Counted from the first letter of the stretch, positions 1-62,589 are shown. The stretch is DNA of 62,589 nucleotides from a virus (IMGVR_UViG_3300046167_000817:1-62589), one strand, 5' to 3'. The notes: a model not told the origin generated them from the letters alone. Translations and numbers: made by a program.

Positions 1-152
1 AGTATAATATAAATAATAACACCCTACTGTCACGCCTTTTACTTATTATATCAGTATAGAATCGTGCTCGGTCCGGGAAAGTAAGCGAGCGTAGCGAGCA
101 GAACAGTGGCCACTTTACTCGTTTTTTGCTATACATGCTATACGCACCTGCC
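1..152. repeat. Left copy of imperfect terminal direct repeat
   Basis: These bases recur at 62439-62589. The two copies differ only around positions 34-42, where this copy reads ccttttactt and the right copy has a plain T run one base shorter. This is either the overlap left by assembling a circular or permuted genome, or a true short terminal repeat. The repeat contains one copy of the leftward promoter element. Confidence 0.95.
49..76 (-). promoter_or_regulatory. Leftward promoter element (copy in left terminal repeat)
   Basis: Read on the minus strand it has GCACGA, an 8-nt gap, then TGATATAAT (an extended -10). The upstream half-repeat is degenerate. Reading left, it crosses the junction towards 62282. 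Confidence 0.6.
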
Positions 153-519: not shown

Positions 520-560
520 TTTAATTTATTTTAGTTATTATTAATTTAATTCATATTTAA

Positions 561-588
561 TATCAATTACTATTCGTGTTTGACTCCT
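561..588 (-). promoter_or_regulatory. Leftward promoter element upstream of the 253-519 gene
   Basis: On the minus strand: AACACGA, 8 nt, then TGATATTA. The TGA is also the stop codon of the membrane peptide encoded at 563-664. The upstream ACGA half is degenerate. Confidence 0.65.
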
Positions 589-664
589 CCGAGTTTGACC
601 CCAGGCTTATCACTACTACCAGCAGGAATAGCACCGCTGGACTTAAAAAGATTATTGCTTCCAT
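563..664 (-). CDS. Putative 33-aa single-pass membrane peptide
   Basis: The frame starts at an ATG at 664 directly downstream of one early promoter element and ends in the TGA of the next. It encodes a strongly hydrophobic helix (LSPAVLFLLVVVISLG) followed by a polar tail ending SNTNSN. The frame stays open further upstream, but a start there would place the promoter inside the gene. Could be a small early membrane effector; function unknown. Confidence 0.4.
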   Translation of the reverse strand: MEAIIFLSPAVLFLLVVVISLGSNSEESNTNSN

Positions 665-672
665 GTACTTAA

Positions 673-700
673 TATCAATAACAGTTCGTGTCAGGCTAGT
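673..700 (-). promoter_or_regulatory. Leftward promoter element before the membrane peptide
   Basis: On the minus strand: GACACGA, 8 nt, TGATATT, nine bases before the ATG at 664. The upstream half-repeat reads ACTA, one mismatch from ACGA. Confidence 0.6.
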
Positions 701-747
701 CCAGAGTAACCAGGTAAAAGCTACCATGCACGCTACAGTACAGGTAT

Positions 748-43700: not shown

Positions 43701-46700
43701 CAACAAAGAGTTGTAAGGGAAGGAGCCGGCGGGTCTTTAATTCAGTTTGCTCAATCACAAGAAGGTAAACAACAATTAAAAGTAATTCCCGAGCAGGAAA
43801 TTAAAGGGTCTATAAAAGCAAAAGATATTGATCAAGCTTATACAGACGGCAAAAGTCCTTTTGAAATATCAGAATTATATAGAGATTTAGTTGAAGTATT
43901 AGCAACAAAATATGAAAATGTGCCCGGTTATAATACTTTTAAAGAAGACCTAATACAAAATACTTTAACAGAAAAAGGGGGAGCCATAGACCTTATAAAC
44001 GATTTTGATGGTAGAGGTAAGCTATCTGGATGGGTAGGTAGGTTTTTACCTGAAAGAATGAAAAAAGTAGCTAAAGATCTTTTTCCTGATAAATTTGCAG
44101 AAAATGTAGACGCAAGAGTGGATGTTGCAAGCCAAGAAACTTTACAAGAAGAAGTTGAAAGAAAAGAATTAGAAAAAACAGAAATACAAGAAGCTAAAGC
44201 GCAAGAAACAAGAAACGTATTAGACAGGCTAGGTCTTTCTAAAAATTTAAAAGGAGTTGCTCTTGAAGCCGCTACTAAAACATTAAGCACTATACTGCCT
44301 CAAATACAAGAAAAAAAAGGTAAAAACTTTAGAGAAAAATATAAAGTTGACGTAAGAAATTTAATTTATGATGATGTTGAAATGGAATTTAACTCATATA
44401 ACGAAAAACAATACTTTAATAAAATAAATGAAGGACCTACTCAACCAGGAGATAAATCTTATGCAGAAAAAATATATGATATAATACCATTACAAGATTT
44501 AGTAAAGAGTCAGTTTGCAAAACCTTTGTTTACAGATCAAGTATTTGAAGCAGACGGTAAACCAAAAAGAGTAGATGAAAGTTTTACAGGTAAAAAAACA
44601 GGTGCTGGTAATTTTGTATATAATAAAAGACCTTGGTCTGAAGTTAAAAGTATATTTTTAAATGAATTTGGGGAAAAAAATAAAAACTCAACTCAAAGAA
44701 AAAAATTTATTATAAATACTATTGCAAAAGAATTAGCGTTTGACGAGTCAATGCAAGCTTTAAAAAGTGAAAGCGTTCAAGAAAAATTACCATTAACTCA
44801 AGAGGCTGAAATTAAATTGTTTAATGAAGAGTTTGAAAGAAATATTGAAAGAGGTAGGTTTACTAAATATAGCGTACGTGCCGGAAAACATTTACAAAAA
44901 TTTCCTGAAAATCAAAATATATTATTTAATACAATAGGAAAAGCTTTAACAAAGGTAACGCCTTCAAATACTTTTTCAAGTTTATTTATTCCTTTAGCTA
45001 AAGATGCAAACATACCTAACTTATCTATTGAAGATATAATTACAATTGCATCGGAACTAGAAGTTTCAATGGGTTCTAATAAACTTTACAATGAGGACGG
45101 CTTAGGGCAAACATATGAAAACATTTTCGGCCTTGATACAGAAAGAGGACAAAGAATAGGCGCAAACCCACAAGTTAAAGACAACACTTTTACGGAAAGT
45201 GAAAAAGATATTAATTTAGGTTTATTACAAAAACATTATAAAAACTCAGGGCTGGCTTCTACACTAGCTCATGTATCTTTTTCAGATAATAATGGATTGG
45301 GTAGAATGTTAAATATTAAAACTGATAGTTTTCCTGAAATAAAAGAATATTTAAAAGAAAACAACATATTAGACGCAATAAATTCAGCGCCAATAAATTC
45401 TGATATAAATTCAACTTCTGGCGATAAAAAAGCAAAAAGAGTAAGAGAGTATATAAAAAGCGGTATAGTTGAAAAAACAAAAGATTCTGATAGATATGTA
45501 GATCAACTTAATGAAAGAAAAAAAGATATTGAAAAACAAATGTTTAAAGTTGATTTAAACTACAGAAATGAATTAAATAAATTAGAAGAAGGCTCTCCTG
45601 AAAAAAGAGCTTTGTTAGAGGAGTTTCAATCTCATAGAGATTTAATGGCGTTTGTTACAAACTCTTTATATACGGGAGGAGTAGGACAAAATAATTCAAG
45701 GACACATTCAAGAGGAGCAACATATACAGCGGGAGTAGCTTTATACGAAGCAAACGGGGAATACTATTTTGAACATATTCCATCTAATTCTACTAAACAT
45801 AAAAAACAGCCAGAGATATATAAGAAACTTTTAAGTGCTACTACTGAAAGTGAAATAGATAATATTGTTGAAGAAAGTAATAACTCTTTTCAAAAAGAAT
45901 CGACTGGTTTATTTTTAGAAAATAGATGGAAAAGAATTTTTACCGCAAAAGGAAACACTGAAATTCAAGGATCAATATACGGTAATATAAATATAACAAC
46001 TGTTGAAAAAGCTATAACAGCTGCTAAAAAACAAAAAGATCAAAAGTTTTTAAATTGGGTTACAGATGAAAAAGGTAATACTAGAGAAGTAAGTGATCTA
46101 AGAAAAGAGTTAGCTGCAAAAATTAATGCGACAGAAGGGCAGCAACAACGTATAGAAGATTTAAAAGCTAAAGGTGTTGATGTTTCAACAATAGATTATC
46201 AAGCTTACCTTAACGAAAAAGTTGAAGCTGATAAAGCAACTAATGAATCAATTACTGTAAAAAGTTCACTTCGTTCTAAACAAATATCAGACATGATAGA
46301 TGGATTAGACACTCGAGGTAGGGGGAAAAGATCTCAGCAAATTAAATCTGGTAAAAACACAGAAGTAACTGCTAAAAGATTATCTGAAAAAGCCGGGCTA
46401 AACTTTAGAAATAAATGGAATTTATGGCTGCCGTACGAAGCTGAAGATTTTTATGGGTTAATACAAAAAATTGCAAGAAGCGGTAAAGTTGGAGAGCAGG
46501 ATATAGAGTTATTAAAAGAAGAGCTTATAGACCCTTATGTACAGGGTGTTTTAAATATAGATTCTCAAAGAAAAGGCATTACAGACACTTTTGATTTAGC
46601 CTTAAAGCAATTAAAAAATATAAATTCAAACATAAAGCTAAATAAAACGATTAAGCAAGAAAATTTAAACTTGTATACTAATGAAGATGCTGTAAGAATA

Positions 46701-51903: not shown

Positions 51904-52706
51904 TATATTGCTACTTCTGCTTTAATTATGGGGCCAGGCTCATAGTCATGTAATACTAAGTTACCACTTTCATATGTAAAAGAACAATCATCTTTATAAT
52001 TTGTTTGCTCTATATATTTTCCTACTGCGTCAAAATGATTTGTATATATGTGTGCATCAATTATAGACACATCTAATTTATTAGGTAAAGTATTTGTTTC
52101 AGAAGCAACATATAACATAATTTTTGTAAATAAACAAATATCATAAGGTATGCCTAAAAACATGTCACCCGACCTTTGAACTACAAACATATTAAGTTTA
52201 CCTTGGTATACATAAAATTGAAAATACAAGTAACAAGGTGGTAAAGCCATTTGCTCCGTCATTGCAGGATTCCATAAACTTATTACATGACGTCTACTGT
52301 GCCTGTCCGCGTTTATATTATCTATAAGATCTTTTAATTGATCTATATCTTCTCCATTAAAGTTTCTTAATTGATAACCATAAACAGGGCCTAAATCACC
52401 TTCAGGCGTAGCCCAGTTATCCCATATATGAACATCATTATCTTTAAATCTTTGAATATTTGTTTCGCCGCGCATAAACCATTCAAACTCTGTGTCAAAT
52501 ATTTTTTGGCTCATGTGCTTGCCTTTTAATATTGGGAAGTTTTTACCTGTAATTTTAGTTAACCCTAATTTACTTTCAGTAAGAAGTTGTATGCTTAATT
52601 GTTTATGGAACAAAGCTTTTGTACCAACACCAGTTCTATCTTTACGTAGATCTCCGTTTTTTATTATATCAATTAGTAGTTTCCTGTATTGCTCTTCGTA
52701 TATCAT
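51903..52706 (-). CDS. Thymidylate synthase-family enzyme, probable dCMP hydroxymethylase, 267 aa
   Basis: Catalytic Cys158 lies in LPPCYLYF, with the phosphate-binding RRHVISLWNP and the HIYTNH segment intact. The residue that reads Asn in thymidylate synthases (GLPFN in E. coli, N177) is Asp here: GIPYD, D189, the same 31-residue distance from Cys as in T4 gp42 (C148, D179). Asp at this place selects dCMP. Start chosen at the ATG at 52706 because a TTG start at 52721 would lie inside the promoter at 52716-52743. Confidence 0.8.
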   Translation of the reverse strand: MIYEEQYRKLLIDIIKNGDLRKDRTGVGTKALFHKQLSIQLLTESKLGLTKITGKNFPILKGKHMSQKIFDTEFEWFMRGETNIQRFKDNDVHIWDNWATPEGDLGPVYGYQLRNFNGEDIDQLKDLIDNINADRHSRRHVISLWNPAMTEQMALPPCYLYFQFYVYQGKLNMFVVQRSGDMFLGIPYDICLFTKIMLYVASETNTLPNKLDVSIIDAHIYTNHFDAVGKYIEQTNYKDDCSFTYESGNLVLHDYEPGPIIKAEVAI

Positions 52707-52715
52707 TGTTTTTAT

Positions 52716-52743
52716 TATCAATTGGTTTTCGTGTTCAATTCGT
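52716..52743 (-). promoter_or_regulatory. Leftward promoter element before dCMP hydroxymethylase gene
   Basis: ACGA, 7 nt, ACGA, 8 nt, TGATAATAA. Both half-repeats are intact. The TGA is the stop codon of the gene at 52718-52972, whose last codons encode ELNTKTN. Confidence 0.8.
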
Positions 52744-52972
52744 ATTTATTGTAATAATAAACACTTGCTTTATATATTTGTTTTTGTATTTCGCCGGGGC
52801 CATATATATCAGGTGATAAATTTGGTTTTTCTCCTTTTTTATAAGGACCTAAGTTTATACCAACTTTCCACGATTTTCCGTTCTCTACACATACAGGAAA
52901 TATTCTTATATTGTTTTTTACACAATAGTTCCATGCTTTATTTTCAAGACGCGTTGAGCTATAAGTACCCAT
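52718..52972 (-). CDS. Hypothetical protein, 84 aa
   Basis: Start chosen at the ATG giving MGTYSSTRLENKAWNYC; the open frame extends upstream to 53044 but would overlap the primase gene. It appears familiar from marine phages and resembles a small nuclease-like domain only weakly. The C-terminus is encoded by the promoter element. Confidence 0.55.
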   Translation of the reverse strand: MGTYSSTRLENKAWNYCVKNNIRIFPVCVENGKSWKVGINLGPYKKGEKPNLSPDIYGPGEIQKQIYKASVYYYNKYELNTKTN

Positions 52973-53028
52973 GTTGAATTTTGTTTTGCGGTAAAGTATG
53001 AAGACAGGCACATACAAATATAGTAAAT

Positions 53029-54753
53029 CTATACATTTTCCCAAGGTAAAGGGTTATTCAATTCTGCATCTTCTTCTATATGTGGTATATATGAACCGCT
53101 TTTTGGTTCCCAAGTAAAGAAACATTCAGCACCATTTTCACCTAAATTTTGAAACTTTACTTTTAATACTTTTACTTTTGTTGTTTTATTTTCATAATCT
53201 CTATGTACTAATAACCCATGGTAACTCGCGTCATACCATTCACCTCCACCTTTAATATTGTACATAGTAGGCTCTTCAATTTTACCTGAACTATCTTTAT
53301 ACATTTTTGTTGGGTGTGCAACTATAATTACTAAAACATCATATCGTTTTGCAAACTGTTCAATTTTAGTTAAATATTCTAATGTATAAGTATTAACGTC
53401 CATACTATTAGCATCTACGTCTCTAATTTTATTAAAAGGGTCAATAACTAAACACTTAATACCTTTGCGCTTTACAAGCTCTGCACCTTTTCTTAACACA
53501 GCTTCAAGTGATGGCACTTCAAGATCAATAAAATAATAATTTTCATTTATATGATTTGAGACCTCTTTCCACTTATCGCCATCAATATCTTCATGTGAAG
53601 GCATACCTCCCCATATTTTACGCATAATTTTGTGTGCGTGTAAATATGTGGGCGCGTTTTCAGGTGAAGCAAAACCTATTTTCCAATCATGACCTATGTT
53701 ATATCCAATAACCATTTGGTCAACGAAATCACTTTTACCACTACTCGGTATACCAGTAACAGTAATAAACTGACCAGTGTAAGTGCTGAAGATATTATCA
53801 AAGTTATTAATCCCAATCTGAAATCCCGGCTTAAAACCGTTTTTAACAAAGTCTTGTAAGTCATCTTCTAAGTCTTTAAAGGTTGTAACATTCTCTAAGG
53901 GTACAGGAGAAGCTTTTTCAATTATATTAATTAAAGATGTAGGGTCTTCTAATAATACCTCATTAGCATCTTTGTGTTTATCAAAATCAACTGTATAACA
54001 AACCTCTGAGCCTAATCGTCTTATTAATTCTTGTTTTAAAGCTATACCAGCTGCATCATTGTCAACTGCTATAATAATTTTTTCTTTATCAGCAAAGTAA
54101 TCAATACAATTATCTAAGTAGTCTAAATTATTTGTATTAAGGGTAGCACCGTTTGGAACTGATATTACATTAGGAATACCAGCTTCGTGTATAGCACAAA
54201 CATCCATTTCGCCTTCTACTATAACACACCAATTATAACCTATTATACTATTTATATTATAAAATACTTTTTCTGCTCCTTTATATAATTTAAAGTTTTT
54301 TCTTGCGTCTCTATATTTAATATTAATGAGTTGATCACCTATCATGTAGTTGAACTTGATGGTGTTTTCTTTTTTGCCGGTTTGCGGCATGTACTCTAGT
54401 CCTTCTGAAATACTAAGGTCTTGAACAGTTTTTTTCGATATACCTCTTGATTTAAACCACTGTAAAGCTTTGGTTTCTACTGCTTTATGTGTTTCTGTAT
54501 CATAAGAAGGTCTTGCATATTCTCTATCTGTTCCTCCTTTTCGTTGGTAAGTGTGTAGTTGAAATGTCTTGTTGCAGTTATGGCAAGTGCCTAAACCTCT
54601 TTCCCAATCAAGACTTGCACATTTTTTTTTCTTGTTTTCAGGTTTACGCTGGTGAGAGCAAAGAGGACAAACACTCTCTGCTTTACCAACGGGTAGATTA
54701 TATTGATTGAAATTTTCGACAAAAAAACCATTAACCTCTACCGTATTTAACAT
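53029..54753 (-). CDS. Primase-helicase (T7 gp4-type), 574 aa
   Basis: Zinc finger C29, C32, C57, C60. A Toprim-like region contains CVIVEGEMDV and IIAVDNDAAG. Helicase Walker A is GIPSSGKSD near residues 335-342, and Walker B is CLVIDPFN. It makes primers and unwinds DNA at the phage fork. It has its own promoter element at 54802-54829. No DNA polymerase accompanies it in this genome. Confidence 0.9.
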   Translation of the reverse strand: MLNTVEVNGFFVENFNQYNLPVGKAESVCPLCSHQRKPENKKKKCASLDWERGLGTCHNCNKTFQLHTYQRKGGTDREYARPSYDTETHKAVETKALQWFKSRGISKKTVQDLSISEGLEYMPQTGKKENTIKFNYMIGDQLINIKYRDARKNFKLYKGAEKVFYNINSIIGYNWCVIVEGEMDVCAIHEAGIPNVISVPNGATLNTNNLDYLDNCIDYFADKEKIIIAVDNDAAGIALKQELIRRLGSEVCYTVDFDKHKDANEVLLEDPTSLINIIEKASPVPLENVTTFKDLEDDLQDFVKNGFKPGFQIGINNFDNIFSTYTGQFITVTGIPSSGKSDFVDQMVIGYNIGHDWKIGFASPENAPTYLHAHKIMRKIWGGMPSHEDIDGDKWKEVSNHINENYYFIDLEVPSLEAVLRKGAELVKRKGIKCLVIDPFNKIRDVDANSMDVNTYTLEYLTKIEQFAKRYDVLVIIVAHPTKMYKDSSGKIEEPTMYNIKGGGEWYDASYHGLLVHRDYENKTTKVKVLKVKFQNLGENGAECFFTWEPKSGSYIPHIEEDAELNNPLPWENV

Positions 54754-54801
54754 AAACTAAATCTAATTATTATGACTAACATAATTGTTTGTCGGTTGTT
54801 A

Positions 54802-54829
54802 TATCATTGCTGCTTCGTGTTGAACCCGT
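54802..54829 (-). promoter_or_regulatory. Leftward promoter element before primase-helicase
   Basis: ACGG, 7 nt, ACGA, 8 nt, TGATATAA. The SSB-like gene's TAA (54831-54833) ends exactly 27 nt before the TGA, in the same reading phase as the other sites. Confidence 0.75.
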
Positions 54830-54830
54830 A

Positions 54831-55151
54831 TTAAAACGGAAGATCATCATCTGTTGGTGCAGCGGCTGCCTGAGATACAGGCGCGGATTGTGACTGGCCT
54901 TGCTGCTGTGCAGCGGGCATAGCCTCTCCGTCCGTCCAAACGACTTTGATATTACCTAAATAAACTTTAGGTTCTTTCGCTTCTCGTTCTTCTTTCGATT
55001 GGTCTACGGTTACAGAACCGTTATTTCCAAACTGATCCATTTCGTTATTGATTGCAACAACGACTGGAATGTATTTACCTTTTTTACCATTATAGATTTT
55101 ATCCTTTGGTATTTTGGTAACATCTAGGTTTCCTTTTAAAATTCCTGCCAT
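54831..55151 (-). CDS. SSB-like protein with DDDLPF tail, 106 aa
   Basis: A short N-terminal beta-rich part with IPVVVAINNEMDQFGNNG, then a Gln/Ala linker, then the acidic ending TDDDLPF, which is the hallmark tail of single-stranded-DNA-binding proteins used to recruit partners. The OB-fold itself is not recognisable by eye. It lies between recombination and replication genes. Confidence 0.7.
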   Translation of the reverse strand: MAGILKGNLDVTKIPKDKIYNGKKGKYIPVVVAINNEMDQFGNNGSVTVDQSKEEREAKEPKVYLGNIKVVWTDGEAMPAAQQQGQSQSAPVSQAAAAPTDDDLPF

Positions 55152-55152
55152 A

Positions 55153-55884
55153 TTATAATGTTTTGGTTATAAAATATTGGTTAGGGTCAAAGTTCTCTGT
55201 TTCGTAAAACAGTTTATAAGTATCAGCTGCTTCCTTTACTTTACGTTGACCCGATTCGTAAAATTCAGTAGAGCATTCAAAGATACCTGTCTTTAATGTA
55301 TTCTTGTCAATTACTAAAAATAAAAATTCATAACCGAACATAGAGGAGTATATATACGCCTGACTGTCATAGTTATATTTTTTACATCTTGGTTTGAATA
55401 AATTAATATCACTTGTCGTTTTTAAATCAACGATAAGCTTGTCGTCGTGGTTTACAATATCAGCTTTGCATTTCCACCATAAATCCTCTATCTGCATAAT
55501 ATTAGGAACTTCATATTCAATATTCATTCCTGAAATTAATTCACCAAAGTATTTATTCTTTTCTATCTTTTCTACCATGTTCTCAATCTTATCAACTTCA
55601 TGTTGTAATAAACATATTTCACCCTCAGATAATTCTCTATATTTTTTTGTATTCCGCGTGCTCGACTCTATAATTTTAAAATTTTTTAATTTATTAGGTT
55701 CAAGTATTGCGGTATGCACATACCTTCCAATCACGAAATTTACATGATTTGGTGTAGGCTCCCTTAATTTAGTAGGGTCGTTTTGTAATATTTGTATATT
55801 TGAATTACTTAAAAACTCACGGCCAATACCATTATAATATTGGTCGTCGTCTTCAAGCATTTTAAGAATTTTGTGTCTTTGCAT
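55153..55884 (-). CDS. PD-(D/E)XK exonuclease, 243 aa
   Basis: WWKCKADIV and LIVDLKTTSD hold the D...DxK catalytic core of the RecB/YqaJ-type nucleases. NYDSQAYIYSSMFG is the usual helix after it. Probably degrades one strand from DNA ends during recombination, paired with the adjacent annealing candidate and SSB. It is followed 1 nt away by the SSB-like gene. Confidence 0.75.
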   Translation of the reverse strand: MQRHKILKMLEDDDQYYNGIGREFLSNSNIQILQNDPTKLREPTPNHVNFVIGRYVHTAILEPNKLKNFKIIESSTRNTKKYRELSEGEICLLQHEVDKIENMVEKIEKNKYFGELISGMNIEYEVPNIMQIEDLWWKCKADIVNHDDKLIVDLKTTSDINLFKPRCKKYNYDSQAYIYSSMFGYEFLFLVIDKNTLKTGIFECSTEFYESGQRKVKEAADTYKLFYETENFDPNQYFITKTL

Positions 55885-56297
55885 TATAGTGTCATTTTAA
55901 CATGATCCGGCGTTGATTGCCTTGGCTTTTTAAAATCATCTGATTCATCTTCACCAAATGCGCCTAGCGCGTAAAATCCTGTTAATTTAAGGGTAATTCT
56001 TGACATAGCCCTCTTTTCAGCCATTGCAAGAACATAACTTTGTCTGCAATTTTTTTCATTAGCTTCACCATAAGTTTCTAGTTTTCTACTATTCCACTCA
56101 GCAGAAGCTTTTACAGCAGCTGAAACACCCGGAGTATATTCTATACAATCAAATGTAATATCAATATCCGCTTGAGCTTGTATCTTATCAATACCTGCTC
56201 TTGTAATTATAGTCCAACCTTGTGGACTCCTAAAAGTATCTTCTTTATCAAGACCATACTTTTTGTATAACTCATTAAGTAATTCACTTTTTGTCAT
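55884..56297 (-). CDS. Conserved phage protein, candidate annealing protein, 137 aa
   Basis: Contains TIITRAGIDKIQAQADI and later AMAEKRAMSRITLKLTG, the latter reminiscent of Rad52/Erf-type annealing proteins. It is immediately upstream of the exonuclease and SSB, the classic recombination trio. It ends one base into the exonuclease start. Function by context. Confidence 0.5.
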   Translation of the reverse strand: MTKSELLNELYKKYGLDKEDTFRSPQGWTIITRAGIDKIQAQADIDITFDCIEYTPGVSAAVKASAEWNSRKLETYGEANEKNCRQSYVLAMAEKRAMSRITLKLTGFYALGAFGEDESDDFKKPRQSTPDHVKMTL

Positions 56298-56305
56298 GCT
56301 TTATA

Positions 56306-56333
56306 TATCAACTTGTACTCGTGTTCGGCTCGT
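56306..56333 (-). promoter_or_regulatory. Leftward promoter element before the recombination operon
   Basis: Best copy: ACGA, 7 nt, ACGA, 8 nt, TGATATATAA. The sigma factor gene stops exactly 27 nt before the TGA in the shared phase. It would drive 56297 leftwards. Confidence 0.85.
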
Positions 56334-56334
56334 A

Positions 56335-57096
56335 TTAACTTAAATAATCAACGACCTGCTCTGGCTCAACGTTTTTTATTAGTTTGTCGATACCGTCTTT
56401 TTTTATTTGTGATACTCTTACGTAAGATGCTGAACCTTTTATACCCAGCTTTTCTGATATTTCTTTTGCGCTTAGTTTTTCGCAATCTAAACCATAACTC
56501 ATTCGCAGTACGTTGTACTCTGTTTCTGTTAAATATAATCTCATTAACCCCATTAAGTATTGATTTAAAATATTTATGTTGTACGTAGTAGAGTTGTCTG
56601 GAATTTGTAATAAAATATTTGCGTCTGTAGAAGTGTTGACGTCTAGACTTACAAAGATACTGTCGAAAAATACTTTTACCATTTCTTTGTTGCTGCTGTT
56701 CTTCCTGATTTCGTTTAACCTGTGCTCCGGTATCCTCATACTTCCCCTGTTTATATCGATCGCTCTTCTTATTGAACCTTTTATTCTTTTCTTCAAAAAA
56801 CCTTTTACCATAAGTGGTTCTTCTCCCGGTTTCGCTGTCCCATAAACCTTGTCCCAGTCTATTCTGTCTACGGCGTTTATCAAACCTATTGTGCCTTCCT
56901 GTATTAGATCTAGTATCGACATCACTCCCGACGCTTGGTACGTTAGTACAAACTTCCATGCTACCGCTTCGACTAGAGGTCTTGCGCATTCTATTAAATC
57001 TTCTCGTGATGTTTCGGAGTTGCAACATTCTTCAAATAACCTTTCTGTTAACTGTTCTTTGTAACGTATGTAGTTTTTTACACTGTAATGTTTCAT
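56335..57096 (-). CDS. Phage sigma factor (sigma70-like), 253 aa
   Basis: Directs RNA polymerase to chosen promoters. Region 2 has LVEAVAWKFV and ILDLIQEGTIGLINAVDRID (residues about 40-80). A short region 3 has GSIRRAIDINRGSMRIPEHR. Region 4 has LTETEYNVLRMSYGLD and LSAKEISEKLG with a recognition helix near SYVRVSQIKKDG. No RNA polymerase is encoded here, so it must redirect the host enzyme. It is itself read from the leftward arm. It overlaps the upstream gene by 65 nt. Confidence 0.85.
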   Translation of the reverse strand: MKHYSVKNYIRYKEQLTERLFEECCNSETSREDLIECARPLVEAVAWKFVLTYQASGVMSILDLIQEGTIGLINAVDRIDWDKVYGTAKPGEEPLMVKGFLKKRIKGSIRRAIDINRGSMRIPEHRLNEIRKNSSNKEMVKVFFDSIFVSLDVNTSTDANILLQIPDNSTTYNINILNQYLMGLMRLYLTETEYNVLRMSYGLDCEKLSAKEISEKLGIKGSASYVRVSQIKKDGIDKLIKNVEPEQVVDYLS

Positions 57097-57706
57097 CGTT
57101 TAATCTTTGCTTCTCTTCTTTTAAAGAGCTACTCATATTCCTAAATATGGTGCGGGTGGTTACTTGAAGTTGAGCAGCTAAGGATTTAACTGTGATTTTT
57201 TTACTTACGTCGTGCATGTATAGCATTGCTTCATACATATCGCTTTCACTTGCTTTCTTTCCTCGTCCTAATACTTTACCAACAAGCTTTAGCTTTTCAA
57301 TACGATCAAGTCTACAACTATCTTTAAATATAATTTTCCTTAATCTATTCTTAGGAGGCTTATCCAATTCCTGCAACCACAAACTTTCAACCATGTTTAC
57401 TAATCTGTTCTCGTCTATTACGAATGTAATAAATCCATTTGACTTGTTTGTAATGTGCTTTCCTAATTTTAAAAACATAGCTTTGGTTATGTGATCATTT
57501 AAATACCACAATACTAATAGATGCCACTTCAAAGATTTAAAAGAAGTTATCTTAGCTTTACTTCTAAACAACTCATAACACTCGTGAGTTCCAGTAGTAT
57601 AGAGCTTATAATCTTTCGTTTCTTCATCTGGCATATCAAATATAGGATCGCGCCTATAAACTATTCTGTGTTTATTTAAATAATCAAGGTTTCTTTCGTG
57701 CGACAT
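57032..57706 (-). CDS. HTH-containing protein, 224 aa
   Basis: The C-terminal segment ITVKSLAAQLQVTTRTIFRN reads as a helix-turn-helix. The N-terminal part is basic with aromatic clusters and no known fold. It overlaps the sigma gene and may work with it in transcription control or act as a replication protein. Confidence 0.6.
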   Translation of the reverse strand: MSHERNLDYLNKHRIVYRRDPIFDMPDEETKDYKLYTTGTHECYELFRSKAKITSFKSLKWHLLVLWYLNDHITKAMFLKLGKHITNKSNGFITFVIDENRLVNMVESLWLQELDKPPKNRLRKIIFKDSCRLDRIEKLKLVGKVLGRGKKASESDMYEAMLYMHDVSKKITVKSLAAQLQVTTRTIFRNMSSSLKEEKQRLNDETLQCKKLHTLQRTVNRKVI

Positions 57707-57734
57707 TTGCGTGCTACTATATTAATTATTGTAC

Positions 57735-57745
57735 CTATTGTCACG
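57735..57745. promoter_or_regulatory. CTATTGTCACG element
   Basis: One of five occurrences (24, 1136, 57735, 58641, 62462) of CTAYTGTCRYG. Here it lies 29 nt upstream of the HTH gene start and could be a control site. Meaning unknown. Confidence 0.3.
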
Positions 57746-57974
57746 TTATTAATATTCTATAATAACGCTGATATTTTCTTAAAAACCACAATTTATTTTT
57801 GATTTCATCAATTATTTCATTCGCGTCAGCATCCGGCATTTTATCCAGATTAAATGTTATACAGCTAATTTCATCATGCAGTTCCCATACGCGAGATCCT
57901 ACATACGCTCTGTGCTTTGCCTTTCGTTTATTGAAAAGCATTGCAACAGGCGAGGGTGTAAAGTTAATCTTCAT
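57741..57974 (-). CDS. Hypothetical protein, 77 aa
   Basis: Starts MKINFTPSPVAMLFNKRKA and is helical afterwards. It overlaps the upstream gene by 11 nt. No family recognised. Confidence 0.5.
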   Translation of the reverse strand: MKINFTPSPVAMLFNKRKAKHRAYVGSRVWELHDEISCITFNLDKMPDADANEIIDEIKNKLWFLRKYQRYYRILIT

Positions 57975-58401
57975 TTACTTTAATATTACTTAAGTTTAAC
58001 TTAGCTTTCTTTTCAGCGTCATGACGAGATTCATCACAAGCGTAATCCCATACTTCTTCGCATATATCTTCGGCTGTACCACCGTTATTAAGCTCATCGG
58101 CAAACCATGTATGAATAGCTACTTTGTAGCCCCCTTTAATATCTGACTCTACTTCGTCCCAAAGATCTTGGGGATCATTAGTCATATTACCAATGTAAGT
58201 GCACTTAGACGTATTGTTTGTAGCATAGTGCAAGAGTGTACCATCCATTGTCTCTTCTGTTATATAAATTGCCCAGCCCGTAAGCTTGCCGCTGTATATA
58301 TCATCTGTTACAATTACCTCAGTACCAAAGTAATCTTCAATTGCTTTCACATAATCGTGAGGCGTAGGTAATTCGTGTATTGGTGTATCTGCGTAACTCA
58401 T
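57964..58401 (-). CDS. Hypothetical acidic protein, 145 aa
   Basis: Acidic soluble protein with IYITEETMDGTLLHYATNN and a helix-rich C-terminus. It overlaps the upstream 61-aa gene by 4 nt. Function unknown. Confidence 0.6.
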   Translation of the reverse strand: MSYADTPIHELPTPHDYVKAIEDYFGTEVIVTDDIYSGKLTGWAIYITEETMDGTLLHYATNNTSKCTYIGNMTNDPQDLWDEVESDIKGGYKVAIHTWFADELNNGGTAEDICEEVWDYACDESRHDAEKKAKLNLSNIKVNED

Positions 58402-58583
58402 AATTCTATTTCAGTTACAGGTTTAAGCGCGTCAGTCTCATTAATGTAATTTAATACATACTTAGCACAATAGTTTTTTTGAAACATATCGAGCTTGTCA
58501 AACTTCTTATCGAAGTGTTTTTCAGCTACTATATTAAGTAGCGCGTCTGTAAGCATACTGCTTGAATTTTTACTTTTTTTCAT
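58398..58583 (-). CDS. Hypothetical protein, 61 aa
   Basis: Basic N-terminus, helical body (AEKHFDKKFDKLDMFQK). First gene after the promoter element at 58606. Confidence 0.55.
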   Translation of the reverse strand: MKKSKNSSSMLTDALLNIVAEKHFDKKFDKLDMFQKNYCAKYVLNYINETDALKPVTEIEL

Positions 58584-58605
58584 ATTTTACTTTATTTGTA
58601 TATAA

Positions 58606-58633
58606 TATCATTCGGTATCCGTGTTGGGTCCGT
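58606..58633 (-). promoter_or_regulatory. Leftward promoter element before the sigma operon
   Basis: ACGG, 7 nt, ACGG, 8 nt, TGATATTATA. Drives the run 58583 to 56335, including the sigma gene. Here the upstream gene is not in the common phase. A CTATTGTCGTG element adjoins it at 58641. Confidence 0.75.
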
Positions 58634-58656
58634 TAGCATACTATTGTCGTGTGACA

Positions 58657-58830
58657 TTAAAACCTTAAACTACCACCGATTTCAGTGTATAGTGCAATGC
58701 GGTGTGGTATAACTATAGCGTTGTTACACCCTCCACAACATTCTCCTTCTTCCTTAACCGGAAAAGGATTATGGCCTCTACCCTGAAATGAGTGATGGCA
58801 GATAACGCATTCTCGCGTATCATTTTCCAT
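58657..58830 (-). CDS. Small zinc-binding protein, 57 aa
   Basis: Contains ECVICHHSF and GECCGGCNNAIVIPHRI: paired cysteines (CxxC and CCxxC) able to hold zinc. A recurring phage and bacterial miniprotein. It overlaps the upstream gene by 11 nt. Confidence 0.65.
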   Translation of the reverse strand: MENDTRECVICHHSFQGRGHNPFPVKEEGECCGGCNNAIVIPHRIALYTEIGGSLRF

Positions 58831-59125
58831 ACTTATTTTTAAGATAGTGTTCGTAAATAGTTTTGCTAATCTGTACTAGTGAAGTGTAGATTACAGCACG
58901 AATATACTTATTTTGGTGGAACTTATCAAGTAAATCTAACTTTTCGTTAATAAGTGTAGTTTCATCGTGATGTAATTTTGTGTGAATTAGATCAACCAAC
59001 TCATAAATTGTCATAGTATAACCAGCTCTTTCTTCTCTAAAGTACTCGTCTTTAAAAAATTCAGCAGCTATATTGTCGATTTCATCTAACTCGTCTTTAG
59101 TAAACCCAAAGTCTTCTGCTTTCAC
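58820..59125 (-). CDS. Hypothetical helical protein, 101 aa
   Basis: Acidic N-terminal helix (FTKDELDEIDNIAAEFFKDE) and a long C-terminal helix. It overlaps both neighbours. Function unknown. Confidence 0.55.
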   Translation of the reverse strand: MKAEDFGFTKDELDEIDNIAAEFFKDEYFREERAGYTMTIYELVDLIHTKLHHDETTLINEKLDLLDKFHQNKYIRAVIYTSLVQISKTIYEHYLKNKYGK

Positions 59126-59427
59126 GTGTCTTGGTTTGAGTTATCTATTCTAGGTAATAACCTGTTGTATGTTATGCCGTCACTATCTCTGCCAATGTTG
59201 TAATCAACAGTATAGTTGTCTTTTAAAAATTTACTATAGTCTTCATAGATTTCATTCCACGCATCATCTCCTAATTCTTTTCTAAACTCTAATATATAAC
59301 GGTTATGTTTAGTTAATCCGTCATACGCATAACAAGATTCCATCATGCTCTTAAAAGCGTCTATATTGTTTTCAAAAGCATTAGTAATAAGTTGATTATC
59401 ACGTAAGGGTAATTTATTTTTTTCCAT
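59122..59427 (-). CDS. Hypothetical protein, 101 aa
   Basis: Acidic, helical, with FRKELGDDAWNEIYEDYSKF. It starts one base before the KTSC gene's end and overlaps the downstream gene by 4 nt. Confidence 0.55.
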   Translation of the reverse strand: MEKNKLPLRDNQLITNAFENNIDAFKSMMESCYAYDGLTKHNRYILEFRKELGDDAWNEIYEDYSKFLKDNYTVDYNIGRDSDGITYNRLLPRIDNSNQDT

Positions 59428-59666
59428 TATATTATTTTTATACTTTGTTTTGTGTGACTGTACGTGTTCTTTATGTTCTTATTATAAAACTTTCCTATAG
59501 AATGACAATTACGCATTCTTTGAAATGTACGTACATGTACTTTCCAATATGAATACATAGTACCGTTTTGAAACAACACTAATAATATTCTTTTTTCTCG
59601 ATCATACGAGACTTGTTTAATTGCTTTACTATCAACTAGTAAAACTTCTTTGCTTACTTTTCTCAT
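59427..59666 (-). CDS. KTSC-domain protein, 79 aa
   Basis: Start set at the ATG giving MRKVSKEVLLVD because the open frame further upstream runs through a tRNA-like sequence. IKQVSYDREKRILLVLFQNG, MYSYWKV and GKFYNKNIKNTY match the KTSC domain (small beta-alpha fold of unknown role found in phages and lysyl-tRNA-related proteins). It lies right after the tRNA genes. Confidence 0.75.
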   Translation of the reverse strand: MRKVSKEVLLVDSKAIKQVSYDREKRILLVLFQNGTMYSYWKVHVRTFQRMRNCHSIGKFYNKNIKNTYSHTKQSIKII

Positions 59667-59668
59667 AG

Positions 59669-59730
59669 AAAGTATGAGAGGATTCGAACCTCTCTGCTCA
59701 CAAGCCGGACTGCGAGCCTCCATTTACTTT
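59669..59730 (-). tRNA. tRNA-like sequence, atypical or incomplete
   Basis: The T arm AGAGG-TTCGAAT-CCTCT is canonical, and AAAGTA pairs with TACTTT as an acceptor stem. Only about 62 nt lie between these ends, and no standard D arm plus anticodon arm can be folded; instead CTCGC pairs with GTGAG around a large loop. It may be a decayed tRNA, a tRNA mimic, or a site of missing bases. Anticodon not assigned. Confidence 0.45.
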
Positions 59731-59752
59731 GTAACCCACGAGCTAATCATCA

Positions 59753-59766
59753 TTAACTCTAGTTAA
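59753..59766. other. Inverted repeat between tRNA genes
   Basis: TTAACT, 2 nt, AGTTAA. Could help processing of the tRNA transcript. Confidence 0.4.
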
Positions 59767-59822
59767 ATGAAATCTGAATTAAAGGAGTTATTAACCGATC
59801 TTCTTTACATATTTCCATTTAG

Positions 59823-59894
59823 TTGCGACGGGCGGACTCGAACCGCCGACCTCTGGGTTATGAGCCCAGCAAGATACCACTTCTCCACGTCGCT
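59823..59894 (-). tRNA. Initiator tRNA-fMet (CAT), 72 nt
   Basis: The cloverleaf folds fully: acceptor AGCGACG/CGTCGCA, D stem GAGA/TCTT, anticodon arm CTGGG-CTCATAA-CCCAG, T arm GGCGG-TTCGAGT-CCGCC. All initiator marks are present: unpaired 1-72 (A/A), purine 11-pyrimidine 24 (A-T), and three G-C pairs at 29-31/39-41. CCA is not encoded. It is the first RNA gene after promoter 59997. Confidence 0.93.
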
Positions 59895-59996
59895 ATATTA
59901 TTAGAGTAAAGGGTGAATCTGGCATTACCTTTTTATATCACCGTTTTGCTTCATGCCGCCAGACATTTACTCATTATGAAATCACTACATATATAA

Positions 59997-60024
59997 TATC
60001 ATTCATCTTTCGTGTCGGGTTCGT
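59997..60024 (-). promoter_or_regulatory. Leftward promoter element before the tRNA genes
   Basis: ACGA, 7 nt, ACGA, 8 nt, TGATATTATATA. Both half-repeats are exact. The TGA is the stop of the 76-aa gene, whose C-terminus NEPDTKDE is encoded by the element. Confidence 0.85.
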
Positions 60025-60229
60025 TTGCGTAGCCACCCAACTTAAACTTATAACTTAAGTCATCAGCAATGGAGTGTATAGCACTTACTACCGCATCCTG
60101 TATTAAGTCATGTATTCTACCGTCTAAATAACCATCAGGTTTCCACGCATCCGTGTTATGATTTTCTAAAGTGTCAATTACTTTTTTCATTGCCTCTTTA
60201 ATATCCATATCTATTAACTCTCTATCCAT
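59999..60229 (-). CDS. Hypothetical protein, 76 aa
   Basis: Acidic helical protein starting MDRELIDMDIKEAMKKV. The C-terminal tail is encoded by the promoter element. It overlaps the upstream gene by 8 nt. Confidence 0.55.
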   Translation of the reverse strand: MDRELIDMDIKEAMKKVIDTLENHNTDAWKPDGYLDGRIHDLIQDAVVSAIHSIADDLSYKFKLGGYANEPDTKDE

Positions 60230-60590
60230 CTTTATTAAGGTTTAATTTACTTTTTATTATTGTTTCAATATCAACGCCATACAAAGCGCCCTCTAAAGCT
60301 AAGTAAGCTGCTTGGCTTACACTATTAGCTCTTTGCCCTGTCATGGGGTCATCAGCAAACACGTCATAACTTAACTCGTCTATAATTTTTTTACAGTCAG
60401 ATGTGTATATTACTTGTGTTTCACAATACTGATGTATGTACTCACTTATATAATGGTCTTCAAATTCGTAGTCATTACTCATTAACTCCCAATTTATATC
60501 AGTAACGATCGTATCAATACAATCTTCTTGGTAGTCTTTAGCGGCTTGTTCTGCTTCAGATAGCCACTCACTTATATTATTGCTTGTCAT
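60222..60590 (-). CDS. Hypothetical acidic protein, 122 aa
   Basis: Contains INWELMSNDYEFEDHYISEY and a C-terminal QAAYLALEGALYG. No family recognised; similar in style to other small early phage proteins that bind host targets. Confidence 0.55.
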   Translation of the reverse strand: MTSNNISEWLSEAEQAAKDYQEDCIDTIVTDINWELMSNDYEFEDHYISEYIHQYCETQVIYTSDCKKIIDELSYDVFADDPMTGQRANSVSQAAYLALEGALYGVDIETIIKSKLNLNKDG

Positions 60591-60591
60591 A

Positions 60592-60721
60592 TTAATCTAA
60601 TTTTGTCCAGTATGTAAATTTATTCATTCTTTTAACTTCACTTTTGAGCTCTTGAATTATTTCAATTAATTCAGTTGAGTCAAGTATTTTTAATTGCTTT
60701 TTTAGTTGGATAATGTTTCAT
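60592..60721 (-). CDS. Small coiled-coil protein, 42 aa, start codon shifted by one base
   Basis: The frame encoding NIIQLKKQLKILDSTELIE and ending TYWTKLD is open but its ATG at 60721 is one base out of phase; removing one A from the ATGAAAC run joins them. The same +1 type of error is seen elsewhere. It lies below the promoter at 60740. Confidence 0.5.
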
Positions 60722-60739
60722 ATTAATCATTTACTTTTA

Positions 60740-60767
60740 TATCAATACTCAATCGTGTCAGCTTCGA
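60740..60767 (-). promoter_or_regulatory. Leftward promoter element at 60.74 kb
   Basis: TCGA (degenerate), 7 nt, ACGA, 8 nt, TGATATAAAA. The TGA is the stop of the zinc-ribbon gene, which ends EADTIEY inside the element. Confidence 0.75.
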
Positions 60768-60888
60768 TCTGCTCTTCACCGCATCTTGGGCATATATCAC
60801 CACATATATCATCACTTACAATTGATGTTAATATTGTGTGACCACAGTTATAACATTCGCCGTCTATTTTATTTTGATACCATTCCAT
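60742..60888 (-). CDS. Zinc-ribbon protein, 48 aa
   Basis: Two CxxC pairs, ECYNCGH and DICPRCGEE, separated by 17 residues. Typical metal-binding ribbon. The stop codon is the -10 TGA of the promoter element. Confidence 0.6.
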   Translation of the reverse strand: MEWYQNKIDGECYNCGHTILTSIVSDDICGDICPRCGEEQIEADTIEY

Positions 60889-61021
60889 CGTCTAAATATT
60901 TACTTATATAATGTTTTAATACTATTTCTTTTTCTTCATCTGTTAATGAATGAAATCCAAACTCTGCAAACATTTCGTCACTGAGTCTATTAAGTTCTGC
61001 TAAATTTCTATACTTGCTCAT
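60869..61021 (-). CDS. Hypothetical protein, 50 aa
   Basis: Helical protein with LAELNRLSDEMFAEFGFHSL. It overlaps the zinc-ribbon gene by 20 nt in another frame. Confidence 0.5.
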   Translation of the reverse strand: MSKYRNLAELNRLSDEMFAEFGFHSLTDEEKEIVLKHYISKYLDDGMVSK

Positions 61022-61124
61022 AATTTTCACTTTCTTGCCATTGGCCACAATCAGCGCAATAACTGTCCATTATTAATTGGTTATATGTTACTTCTTCACT
61101 ATTACAATATTTACACTTGCTCAT
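61008..61124 (-). CDS. Zinc-ribbon protein, 38 aa
   Basis: Two CxxC pairs, CKYCNS and YCADCGQW. It overlaps both neighbours by 14 nt. Confidence 0.55.
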   Translation of the reverse strand: MSKCKYCNSEEVTYNQLIMDSYCADCGQWQESENYEQV

Positions 61125-61326
61125 ATTCTTTTATTACTTTTAAACCATACTCTCCTGCCACATAATTAATGTGTCTTTGCGTAGTCACTGACCACCACCC
61201 GTGTTGAAGTATGTGTCCATCTTCAAATTGAGTATCACGTACTATTGTTGCTACGTGTGTATCATAAGAGTAGATTTTACCGTCTACTTCTCTTAAATTC
61301 TTTTTATGTTTTTCAAATGTTTTCAT
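61111..61326 (-). CDS. Hypothetical protein, 71 aa
   Basis: Small beta-rich protein with SYDTHVATIVRD and a central ILQHGWWSVTTQRHINYV. The last base of the upstream gene is its first. Function unknown. Confidence 0.55.
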   Translation of the reverse strand: MKTFEKHKKNLREVDGKIYSYDTHVATIVRDTQFEDGHILQHGWWSVTTQRHINYVAGEYGLKVIKEYEQV

Positions 61327-61511
61327 TACTCGTGAATTATTGGTATTTCGTCATGCACCATCCACTCACAGTTAGTTAAGTTATGACCCATTTTTGTTAT
61401 TGCGGCTTCAAGCTCCTCGCTATCCATATCCCACGTATTTATAGGGTAGGTTATTACGTCGCCGTCACCAAAGTCTAATACTGTTACGTATTTTTCAAAT
61501 TCGCTTTTCAT
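61326..61511 (-). CDS. Hypothetical acidic protein, 61 aa
   Basis: Acidic protein with FGDGDVITYPINTWDMDSEE. Could mimic DNA or bind a host factor, but no specific match. Confidence 0.5.
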   Translation of the reverse strand: MKSEFEKYVTVLDFGDGDVITYPINTWDMDSEELEAAITKMGHNLTNCEWMVHDEIPIIHE

Positions 61512-61515
61512 ATAT

Positions 61516-61635
61516 TTAATTTTTAGACTCTTCTTGTTTAGCTTTTAAGTAAGCGTTAGTCACCTTATCAATCCACCATTGAGGTCTTGGCTTGTAAGTA
61601 GCGTTATGTAATTCTTGCAATTCTTGTTTTGTCAT
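61516..61635 (-). CDS. Hypothetical peptide, 39 aa
   Basis: Starts MTKQELQELHNATYKPRPQW and has a helical basic tail. First gene after the promoter at 61655. Confidence 0.5.
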   Translation of the reverse strand: MTKQELQELHNATYKPRPQWWIDKVTNAYLKAKQEESKN

Positions 61636-61654
61636 TGTCTTTATTTTATATTTA

Positions 61655-61682
61655 TATCATTACTGTTTCGTATTAGGCTCGT
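61655..61682 (-). promoter_or_regulatory. Leftward promoter element at 61.66 kb
   Basis: ACGA, 7 nt, ACGA, 8 nt, TGATATAAATATA. The upstream 42-aa gene ends NEPNTKQ inside the element and stops at TAA right beside the TGA. Confidence 0.85.
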
Positions 61683-61788
61683 TGTCTATTTTAACAAGTT
61701 TACCATTTACCTTTTTATATCCCATTCTTTTGTATGAACGGTCGAGTACTTCTCTGGTTACATCTTTACCATTTCTATATACTATCAT
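61660..61788 (-). CDS. Hypothetical basic protein, 42 aa
   Basis: Contains VYRNGKDVTREVLDRSYKRM. The tail is encoded by the promoter element. No family recognised. Confidence 0.5.
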   Translation of the reverse strand: MIVYRNGKDVTREVLDRSYKRMGYKKVNGKLVKIDNEPNTKQ

Positions 61789-61791
61789 AAT

Positions 61792-61974
61792 TTAATAATT
61801 TACATTTTCTAACTCTTCTAATCTATCACATAATGCATCTATATTTTCTTGCATTTCCTTTACTTGCTTTCTTAAAGTTATTACTTCTTCAATAGCGGAA
61901 GACGCTACGGATTGCATAGGGTTTTCTTTTTTATACTTTTCGTATAATTTTCCAAATTCAGTATAGTTTTTCAT
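61792..61974 (-). CDS. Small coiled-coil protein, 60 aa
   Basis: Ends in leucine heptads (ITLRKQVKEMQENIDALCDR). It overlaps its neighbour by 4 nt. Confidence 0.5.
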   Translation of the reverse strand: MKNYTEFGKLYEKYKKENPMQSVASSAIEEVITLRKQVKEMQENIDALCDRLEELENVNY

Positions 61975-62153
61975 AATTCTGTATATGTTTTAATTTCACC
62001 TTTGTCATCTGAGTCCATAAACTCATTACCAAACATAATCGTATTGATTAGTTCTTCTATTTGTATTTCTTCTCTTCCAGATTTTACTTTTTTTAACTGA
62101 TAAAGAAATTTTACTAGTGTACCTACCTGTGCTTGTCTAAATTCTATTTTCAT
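61971..62153 (-). CDS. Hypothetical protein, 60 aa
   Basis: Helical, charged, with QAQVGTLVKFLYQLKKVKSG. Function unknown. Confidence 0.5.
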   Translation of the reverse strand: MKIEFRQAQVGTLVKFLYQLKKVKSGREEIQIEELINTIMFGNEFMDSDDKGEIKTYTEL

Positions 62154-62156
62154 ATT

Positions 62157-62282
62157 TTAATTATTTAATTCTTCACTTAATATTTGCTCTACTGCTTGAG
62201 TAAAGTCATCTTTGTCTATTATACCTTCCTTATACACATTAGCATGGAATAGTATTTCTTTACTTATGCTTTCAATTTTCAT
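62157..62282 (-). CDS. Hypothetical protein, 41 aa
   Basis: Starts MKIESISKEILFHANVYKEG, acidic helical C-terminus. First gene of the leftward arm after the promoter at 62311. Confidence 0.5.
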   Translation of the reverse strand: MKIESISKEILFHANVYKEGIIDKDDFTQAVEQILSEELNN

Positions 62283-62310
62283 ATTATTATTATTTTAAAT
62301 TCACTTATAA

Positions 62311-62338
62311 TATCATTGTAAACTCGTATTGGACTCGT
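62311..62338 (-). promoter_or_regulatory. First leftward promoter element of the early arm
   Basis: ACGA, 7 nt, ACGA, 8 nt, TGATATTATAA. Both half-repeats are exact. Drives 62282 leftwards; no gene is found upstream. Confidence 0.8.
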
Positions 62339-62438
62339 AATAGTAAAGTAGTAGTTTTGTTTAAGTGTAGATTAGTAGTGTACAGGTATTAAGCTTCTTC
62401 TCTTACTGTGAGTAAAGAGGAAAAAGGTGACGTTAGGT

Positions 62439-62589
62439 AGTATAATATAAATAATAACACCCTACTGTCACGCTTTTTTTTATTATATCAGTATAGAATC
62501 GTGCTCGGTCCGGGAAAGTAAGCGAGCGTAGCGAGCAGAACAGTGGCCACTTTACTCGTTTTTTGCTATACATGCTATACGCACCTGCC
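62439..62589. repeat. Right copy of imperfect terminal direct repeat
   Basis: Matches 1-152 except for one missing base and a few changes in the T run after CACGC. It implies a unit length near 62,438 bp if the two are assembly overlap. Confidence 0.95.
62486..62513 (-). promoter_or_regulatory. Leftward promoter element (copy in right terminal repeat)
   Basis: Same element as 49-76: GCACGA, 8 nt, TGATATAAT on the minus strand. It is about 200 nt upstream of the early arm's first gene and may add to the promoter at 62311. Confidence 0.6.

What the first reader, a model, noticed from the sequence alone, without database searches (positions are those of the whole stretch)
52716..61682. Promoters that also encode the C-terminus and stop codon of the upstream gene
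At 561, 52716, 59997, 60740 and 61655 the element is translated in one shared phase, giving tails such as NEPDTKDE, NEPNTKQ and ELNTKTN, and the TGA of the -10 box is the stop (or follows a TAA directly). At 54802 and 56306 the upstream gene stops with TAA exactly 27 nt before the TGA, again in that phase. So seven of eight sites with a recognisable upstream gene share one phase; if phases were random this is about a 0.3 percent chance (my arithmetic). It suggests the promoters spread as 3'-end cassettes with small genes, or that a conserved tail is selected.
Basis: seen in the sequence. Interest (0 to 1): 0.85.

Follow-up and report, generated by a model that had tools for sequence, protein, structure and literature searches.

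The report
Phage promoters that end upstream genes
In a group of uncultured marine phages the repeated promoter-like elements are packed so tightly against the genes before them that the promoter's own letters spell those genes' last amino acids and stop codons, but the reading frame used follows which frames contain a stop and differs between relatives, so the shared tail is a by-product and not a conserved protein feature.

Summary
In the window, five upstream genes run into a minus-strand promoter-like element in one frame and stop at (or one codon before) the TGA of its -10 box; two more stop 27 nt earlier in that frame. The interpretation mostly fails. A 41-nt profile found 281 such elements in 80 related viral loci plus the window, with one opposite-strand hit. 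Upstream genes end inside or just before the element in all three frames. After collapsing relatives, 66 overlaps split 29/23/14; choosing evenly among frames that hold an in-element stop predicts 31/20/15 (chi2 0.65). The frame bias therefore comes from where the stops are. Nine of 25 gene families with two or more overlaps use more than one frame. In two contigs 97.8% identical across the slot, the same gene ends ...NNKADTSQ* (frame 2) in one and ...LRVKHEKT* (frame 1) in the other. Tails are not conserved. Gene-plus-promoter movement is partly supported: near relatives show swaps with breakpoints at promoters, including one hybrid promoter. Across all relatives, breakpoints are no more frequent at promoters than at other gene boundaries (65 versus 68±4), and the promoter is not bound to its upstream gene.

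The parts
61644..61684 (-). promoter-like element (41-nt profile); upstream gene ends TAA directly before the TGA of -10
   Evidence: profile score 35.2
61660..61788 (-). small gene, 42 aa, tail IDNEPNTKQ encoded by the element
60729..60769 (-). promoter-like element; TGA of -10 is the stop of the Zn-ribbon gene
60742..60888 (-). zinc-ribbon-like gene, 48 aa, tail EEQIEADTIEY; seen with a promoter behind it and three different downstream genes in relatives
60869..61021 (-). gene MSKYRNLAELNR..., 50 aa; its tail GMVSK* is encoded by the start of the Zn-ribbon gene here, and by promoters (two different frames) in L007 and L109
59986..60026 (-). promoter-like element; TGA of -10 is the stop of the upstream gene
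59999..60229 (-). gene of 76 aa, tail NEPDTKDE; family members elsewhere end at -21 or -28 instead
58595..58635 (-). promoter-like element without an overlapping upstream gene
56295..56335 (-). promoter-like element; sigma gene stops (TAA) at its outer edge, 27 nt before the TGA
56335..57096 (-). phage sigma factor (Sigma70 regions 2 and 4)
54791..54831 (-). promoter-like element; upstream gene 54831-55151 stops at its edge
52705..52745 (-). promoter-like element; TGA of -10 is the stop of the upstream gene
52718..52972 (-). small gene, tail YELNTKTN encoded by the element; thymidylate synthase follows
62300..62340 (-). promoter-like element, no upstream gene
62475..62515 (-). promoter-like element in the right end repeat (same as 38-78)
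38..78 (-). promoter-like element in the left end repeat
662..702 (-). promoter-like element in front of the 33-aa membrane-peptide ORF
550..590 (-). promoter-like element; TGA of -10 is the stop of the 33-aa ORF
563..664 (-). ORF MEAIIFLSPAVLFLLVVVISLGSNSEESNTNSN*, a predicted one-helix membrane peptide

Best explanation
The element is a phage promoter family: a -35-like block ACRRRCY, a conserved A(C/T)ACGA in the spacer, and a -10 of TGATAT or GGATAAT. It is read on one strand only in the replication and small-gene arm. These arms are so compact that each promoter sits against, or inside, the 3' end of the gene before it. The promoter sequence itself contains stop codons: -21 TAA in ACGTAAC lineages, -18 TAA in CTAAATACGA lineages, -1 TGA in TGATAT lineages, +2 TAA in GGATAAT lineages. 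A gene whose own stop is lost, or cut off when neighbours are exchanged, is ended at an in-promoter stop that its frame meets, and so acquires a tail that is just the translated promoter. In the window's lineage the -18 TAA is absent and the only stop always present is the -10 TGA, so nearly all overlapping genes use that frame. The tail has no selected sequence of its own. Gene exchange at or within promoters occurs and re-makes the tails, but promoters are not special hotspots. Shown: element family, strand bias, stop positions, frame statistics, tail turnover, hybrid promoter. Inferred: that the element is an active promoter, that the tails are functionally neutral, and that a sigma-type factor reads it.
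For: 281 profile hits, 1 on the opposite strand, 0 in reversed sequence. Gaps at promoter junctions have a median of 49 nt, about the size of the element, against 0 at other junctions. Upstream stops pile up at -29/-28, -21, -18, -17, -1 and +2. Deduplicated overlaps: stop at or before +2 in 66 of 71 versus 52.6 +- 3.2 expected with random frames; frame split 29/23/14 versus 31/20/15 expected from available stops, chi2 0.65. 9 of 25 families use more than one frame. Orthologues without the promoter end at about the same residue without the tail, e.g. ...LTPEQEKSLTTL* against ...LTPEQEKL[LQA]*...LTESQV[NKLNTI]*...LSKAKV[AS]*. Same gene, same slot, 97.8% identical contigs, two frames: NNKADTSQ* against LRVKHEKT*. 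The MSKYRN gene gets its tail from the promoter in L007 but from the start of the Zn-ribbon gene in the window. Hybrid promoter L125 P303: left flank 73/84 to L007 P3524 (23/84 to P4305), right flank 104/108 to P4305 (34/108 to P3524).
Against: No expression data, so promoter activity is inferred. Within the window's own lineage the TGA frame is used in all five window genes and in L007's MSKYRN gene, although frame 1 often has an earlier stop at -17, so a mild residual preference for the -10 TGA is not excluded; L109's frame-1 case argues against a strict rule. NEPDTKDE, NEPDTEDE and NEPNTEDE keep DE in the spacer across three close relatives, which could be recent ancestry or weak tail selection. 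Deduplication by family and stop position only partly removes relatedness.
Confidence: 0.82

Rival explanations
1. Mobile 3'-end cassettes: the unit that spreads is an upstream small gene with its promoter attached, so frame and tail are inherited with the unit.
For: The Zn-ribbon gene has a promoter directly behind it and three different downstream genes in the window/L006, L007/L109 and L125. Hybrid promoter in L125. The 59999 family always has a promoter behind it, 6 of 6.
Against: Breakpoints at promoters 65 against 68 +- 4 at equal numbers of other junctions within 30 nt. Adjacency no less conserved (0.659 vs 0.664), and promoter not retained with the upstream gene when the downstream gene changes (0.249 vs null 0.256). 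Frames and stops differ within families.
Confidence: 0.15
2. A conserved C-terminal tail (N-E-P-N/D-T...) is selected for a protein function such as a degradation or interaction tag.
For: The tail recurs on several unrelated small proteins in one genome and, in similar form (YKQNTNTVG), in other phages.
Against: Tail equals promoter translation. Orthologues with other frames or no promoter have unrelated tails. The same gene carries three different tails in near relatives.
Confidence: 0.03
3. Ending at the -10 stop is favoured because it stops ribosomes before they cross the start site of the next transcript, or couples translation to the downstream gene.
For: Stops by +2 exceed random-frame expectation (66 vs 52.6 +- 3.2). 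Very few genes read past the -10.
Against: Read-through genes would also be longer and overlap the next gene, so compaction alone can explain it. Stops at -18 and -28 are as common as those in the -10, so no specific position is favoured.
Confidence: 0.2

Closest known systems
PeSLs, promoter-early stem-loop mobile regulatory cassettes of T4-like phages (Arbiol 2010, Comeau 2014; read here only through PMC4503421, which states that they mediate gene shuffling between T4-like phages)
   Same: Repeated promoter sequences between small early genes, with gene exchange at them in close relatives.
   Different: No terminator-like stem-loop at the elements. Not enriched for breakpoints beyond other gene boundaries. 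Here the element encodes the upstream gene's end.
Internal promoters overlapping the 3' end of the preceding gene in compact phage and bacterial genomes (general knowledge)
   Same: Promoter letters are also coding letters and carry the stop.
   Different: Here it is a repeated family in which stop positions and frames can be counted across hundreds of sites.
Insertion-type repeats that supply C-termini and stops to adjacent ORFs (general knowledge)
   Same: A repeated DNA element lends a tail to unrelated proteins.
   Different: No evidence of an inserting element: no ends or target duplication were seen (not searched systematically); the element is a promoter-like site with a downstream gene.

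Membership tests
PeSL mobile regulatory cassette | repeated early-promoter sequence between early genes | tested here: met
   281 sites, one strand; early timing itself not testable
PeSL mobile regulatory cassette | stem-loop (terminator) joined to the promoter | tested here: not met
   no terminator-like site at any element in 52000-62589; 5 found, 4.2 +- 2.2 expected by chance, none at the elements
PeSL mobile regulatory cassette | gene shuffling concentrated at the cassettes | tested here: not met
   individual swaps at promoters seen, but not more than at other junctions
promoter overlapping the upstream 3' end | stop codon of the upstream gene inside the promoter | tested here: met
   112 of 281 sites have the called upstream stop inside or past the element
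sigma-type promoter | two blocks with fixed spacing upstream of gene starts on the same strand | tested here: met
sigma-type promoter | transcription starts downstream of it | not testable with these tools
   no RNA data
promoter of the phage's own sigma factor | -35 block covaries with sigma region 4 | tested here: not met
   partial correlation -0.17 after control for primase; -10 block versus region 2 gives 0.22, P=0.002

The most novel reading that the evidence does not exclude
The promoters act as stop-and-start joints: selection keeps stop codons in several frames inside the promoter so that any upstream gene brought next to it by exchange is closed before the next transcript begins, which makes the arm safe to rearrange. 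Stops in all three frames by +9 occur in 121 of 298 elements against 83 of 298 in one composition-matched shuffle, a modest excess that the AT-rich promoter consensus could also give.
Probability: 0.15. Interest if true: 0.6.

Novelty: new variant of a known kind. Interest (0 to 1): 0.4.

Why it matters
It shows, with countable cases, how the C-termini of small phage proteins can be set by a regulatory element and not by the gene, and be replaced in a single exchange. Annotators should not read such shared tails as domains or tags. It also provides what appears to be an undescribed promoter family in a large group of uncultured, probably flavobacterial, phages, with fixed geometry and fast-changing -35 letters.

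Tried and rejected
Promoter as cassette bound to the upstream gene: not supported in set-wide tests. Sigma region 4 reading the -35 block: no covariation. Close annotated phage relatives: no DNA-level match and no sigma match in the phage collection; Cellulophaga phage phi10:1 (first 28 kb), Flavobacterium phage elemoE (first 30 kb) and MW202828 give no good profile hit. Exact-pattern scans of viral contigs found only a few more contigs carrying the window-type element. Literature search for promoters overlapping upstream stops found nothing specific in the held library. An attempt to read the PeSL paper itself failed because it is not held.

Full report
What is there. The window is a viral record of 62,589 bases whose ends repeat (1-152 and 62433-62589). 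The right 13 kb is a minus-strand replication and small-gene arm with thymidylate synthase, primase-helicase, a sigma factor with regions 2 and 4, and many small genes. The terminase is 46% identical to that of Flavobacterium phages of the genus Elemovirus, and 62% to an uncultured podovirus, so a flavobacterial host is likely but not shown. Twelve copies of a promoter-like element lie on the minus strand; two of them are the same element in the two end repeats.

The observation. re-derives it. Four genes run into an element and stop on the TGA of its -10 box; one stops on a TAA directly before it; two stop 27 nt earlier in the same frame.

Relatives. The primase-helicase brought in 80 viral loci. 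Only the nearest share the exact motif, but many others carry diverged versions with the same spacing, such as TTACAAACTAAATACGA N8 GGATAATAT, CACGGACTT...GATAAT and TACGTAACAAATACGA...GATAAT. A 41-nt profile with a per-locus update finds 281 sites, one on the opposite strand, and none in reversed sequence. No promoter activity has been measured, so 'promoter' is an inference from position, strand and two-block form.

Where upstream genes stop. A codon-pair gene caller trained on these loci gives upstream stops at a few places relative to the G of the -10: -28/-29, just before the element; -21 and -18, TAA inside the -35 to ACGA stretch; -17; -1, the TGA of TGATAT; and +2, the TAA of GGATAAT. 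Gaps at promoter junctions have a median of 49 nt, about the size of the element, while other junctions have a median of 0. The arm is packed as tightly as the element allows.

Why one frame in the window. Among 71 deduplicated overlaps, 66 stop by +2, against 52.6±3.2 if frames were random. Their frames split 29 (frame 2), 23 (frame 0) and 14 (frame 1). If each gene simply takes one of the frames that has a stop in its own promoter, 31, 20 and 15 are expected (chi2 0.65). In the window's lineage the -18 TAA has been lost at most sites (CTAAATACGA has become CCNAACACGA), so frame 0 usually has no stop until +15 or later, and the TGA frame is the only one always closed. Frame 1 often has a -17 stop there and is used less than it could be, so a small residual preference is possible.

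Tails are not conserved. Nine of 25 families with overlaps in two or more loci use more than one frame. The family of the window's 59999 gene ends at -1, -21 or -28. Gene family 8 of the gene clustering, which precedes family 4 in the arm, ends ...LTTL without a promoter and in [AS], [LQA] or [NKLNTI] with one, in three frames. The MSKYRN gene ends in GMVSK* in the window, where the start of the Zn-ribbon gene supplies the letters. It ends in NNKADTSQ* in L007 and in LRVKHEKT* in L109, where the promoter supplies them in two different frames, although L007 and L109 are 97.8% identical over 2.85 kb.

Do gene-plus-promoter units move? In near relatives, yes in individual cases. The Zn-ribbon gene has a promoter directly behind it and three different downstream genes. 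The L125 promoter is a hybrid: its left flank matches L007 P3524 (73/84) and its right flank matches L007 P4305 (104/108), with chance-level identity the other way round. This is what a crossover inside the promoter, removing or adding the four genes between, would give. Window P932 and L006 P825 share the left flank (83/84) and nearly the whole element, then diverge. Set-wide, however, breakpoints of similarity lie at gene boundaries in general: 65 at promoters within 30 nt against 68±4 for as many promoter-less junctions and 23±5 for random places. At 45 and 60 nt promoters are somewhat ahead (87 vs 74±4; 93 vs 77±4), where the shared element itself lengthens alignments. Adjacency is equally conserved with and without a promoter (0.659, 0.664). 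When the downstream gene is kept and the upstream gene differs, the promoter is kept in 42% (null 25±2%); in the reverse case in 25% (null 26±2%). Averaged per family the two are equal (0.31, 0.32), so a few downstream families drive the difference.

What reads it. The -35 block diverges with the primase tree (rho 0.69) but shows no extra covariation with sigma region 4. The -10 block shows a weak one with region 2 (0.22, P=0.002). The reading factor is therefore open.

Verdict. The explanation is stop-codon supply by a tightly packed promoter, with tails as by-products and occasional exchange at promoters. It is a countable variant of a known situation, not a new kind of system.

Noticed in passing
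window 38-78, 62475-62515 and the other ten elements; loci: The promoter family keeps its spacing across the group while the -35 letters change by lineage, without covariation with sigma region 4; what reads it is unknown.
   Followed up: partly
L133 (MW202828.1 25001-60850): About 15 copies of an inverted repeat GTGTCG N4 CGACAC in a genome with an annotated repressor gene; looks like repeated operators.
   Followed up: no
window 563-664: ORF of 33 aa with one hydrophobic helix between two promoter-like elements, ending in the second one.
   Followed up: no
window 40719-48488: 2589-aa late protein without Pfam match; its first 960 aa have no match in the phage collection.
   Followed up: no
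window 35266-36990: Protein with a crAss-type muzzle C-terminal domain match.
   Followed up: no
window 59822-59894: tRNA-Met (CAT) on the minus strand inside the small-gene arm.
   Followed up: no
window 56335-57096 versus 56366-57028: The sigma gene carries a long second open frame (220 aa) on the same strand; in L007 the gene caller chose that frame. Probably chance.
   Followed up: no
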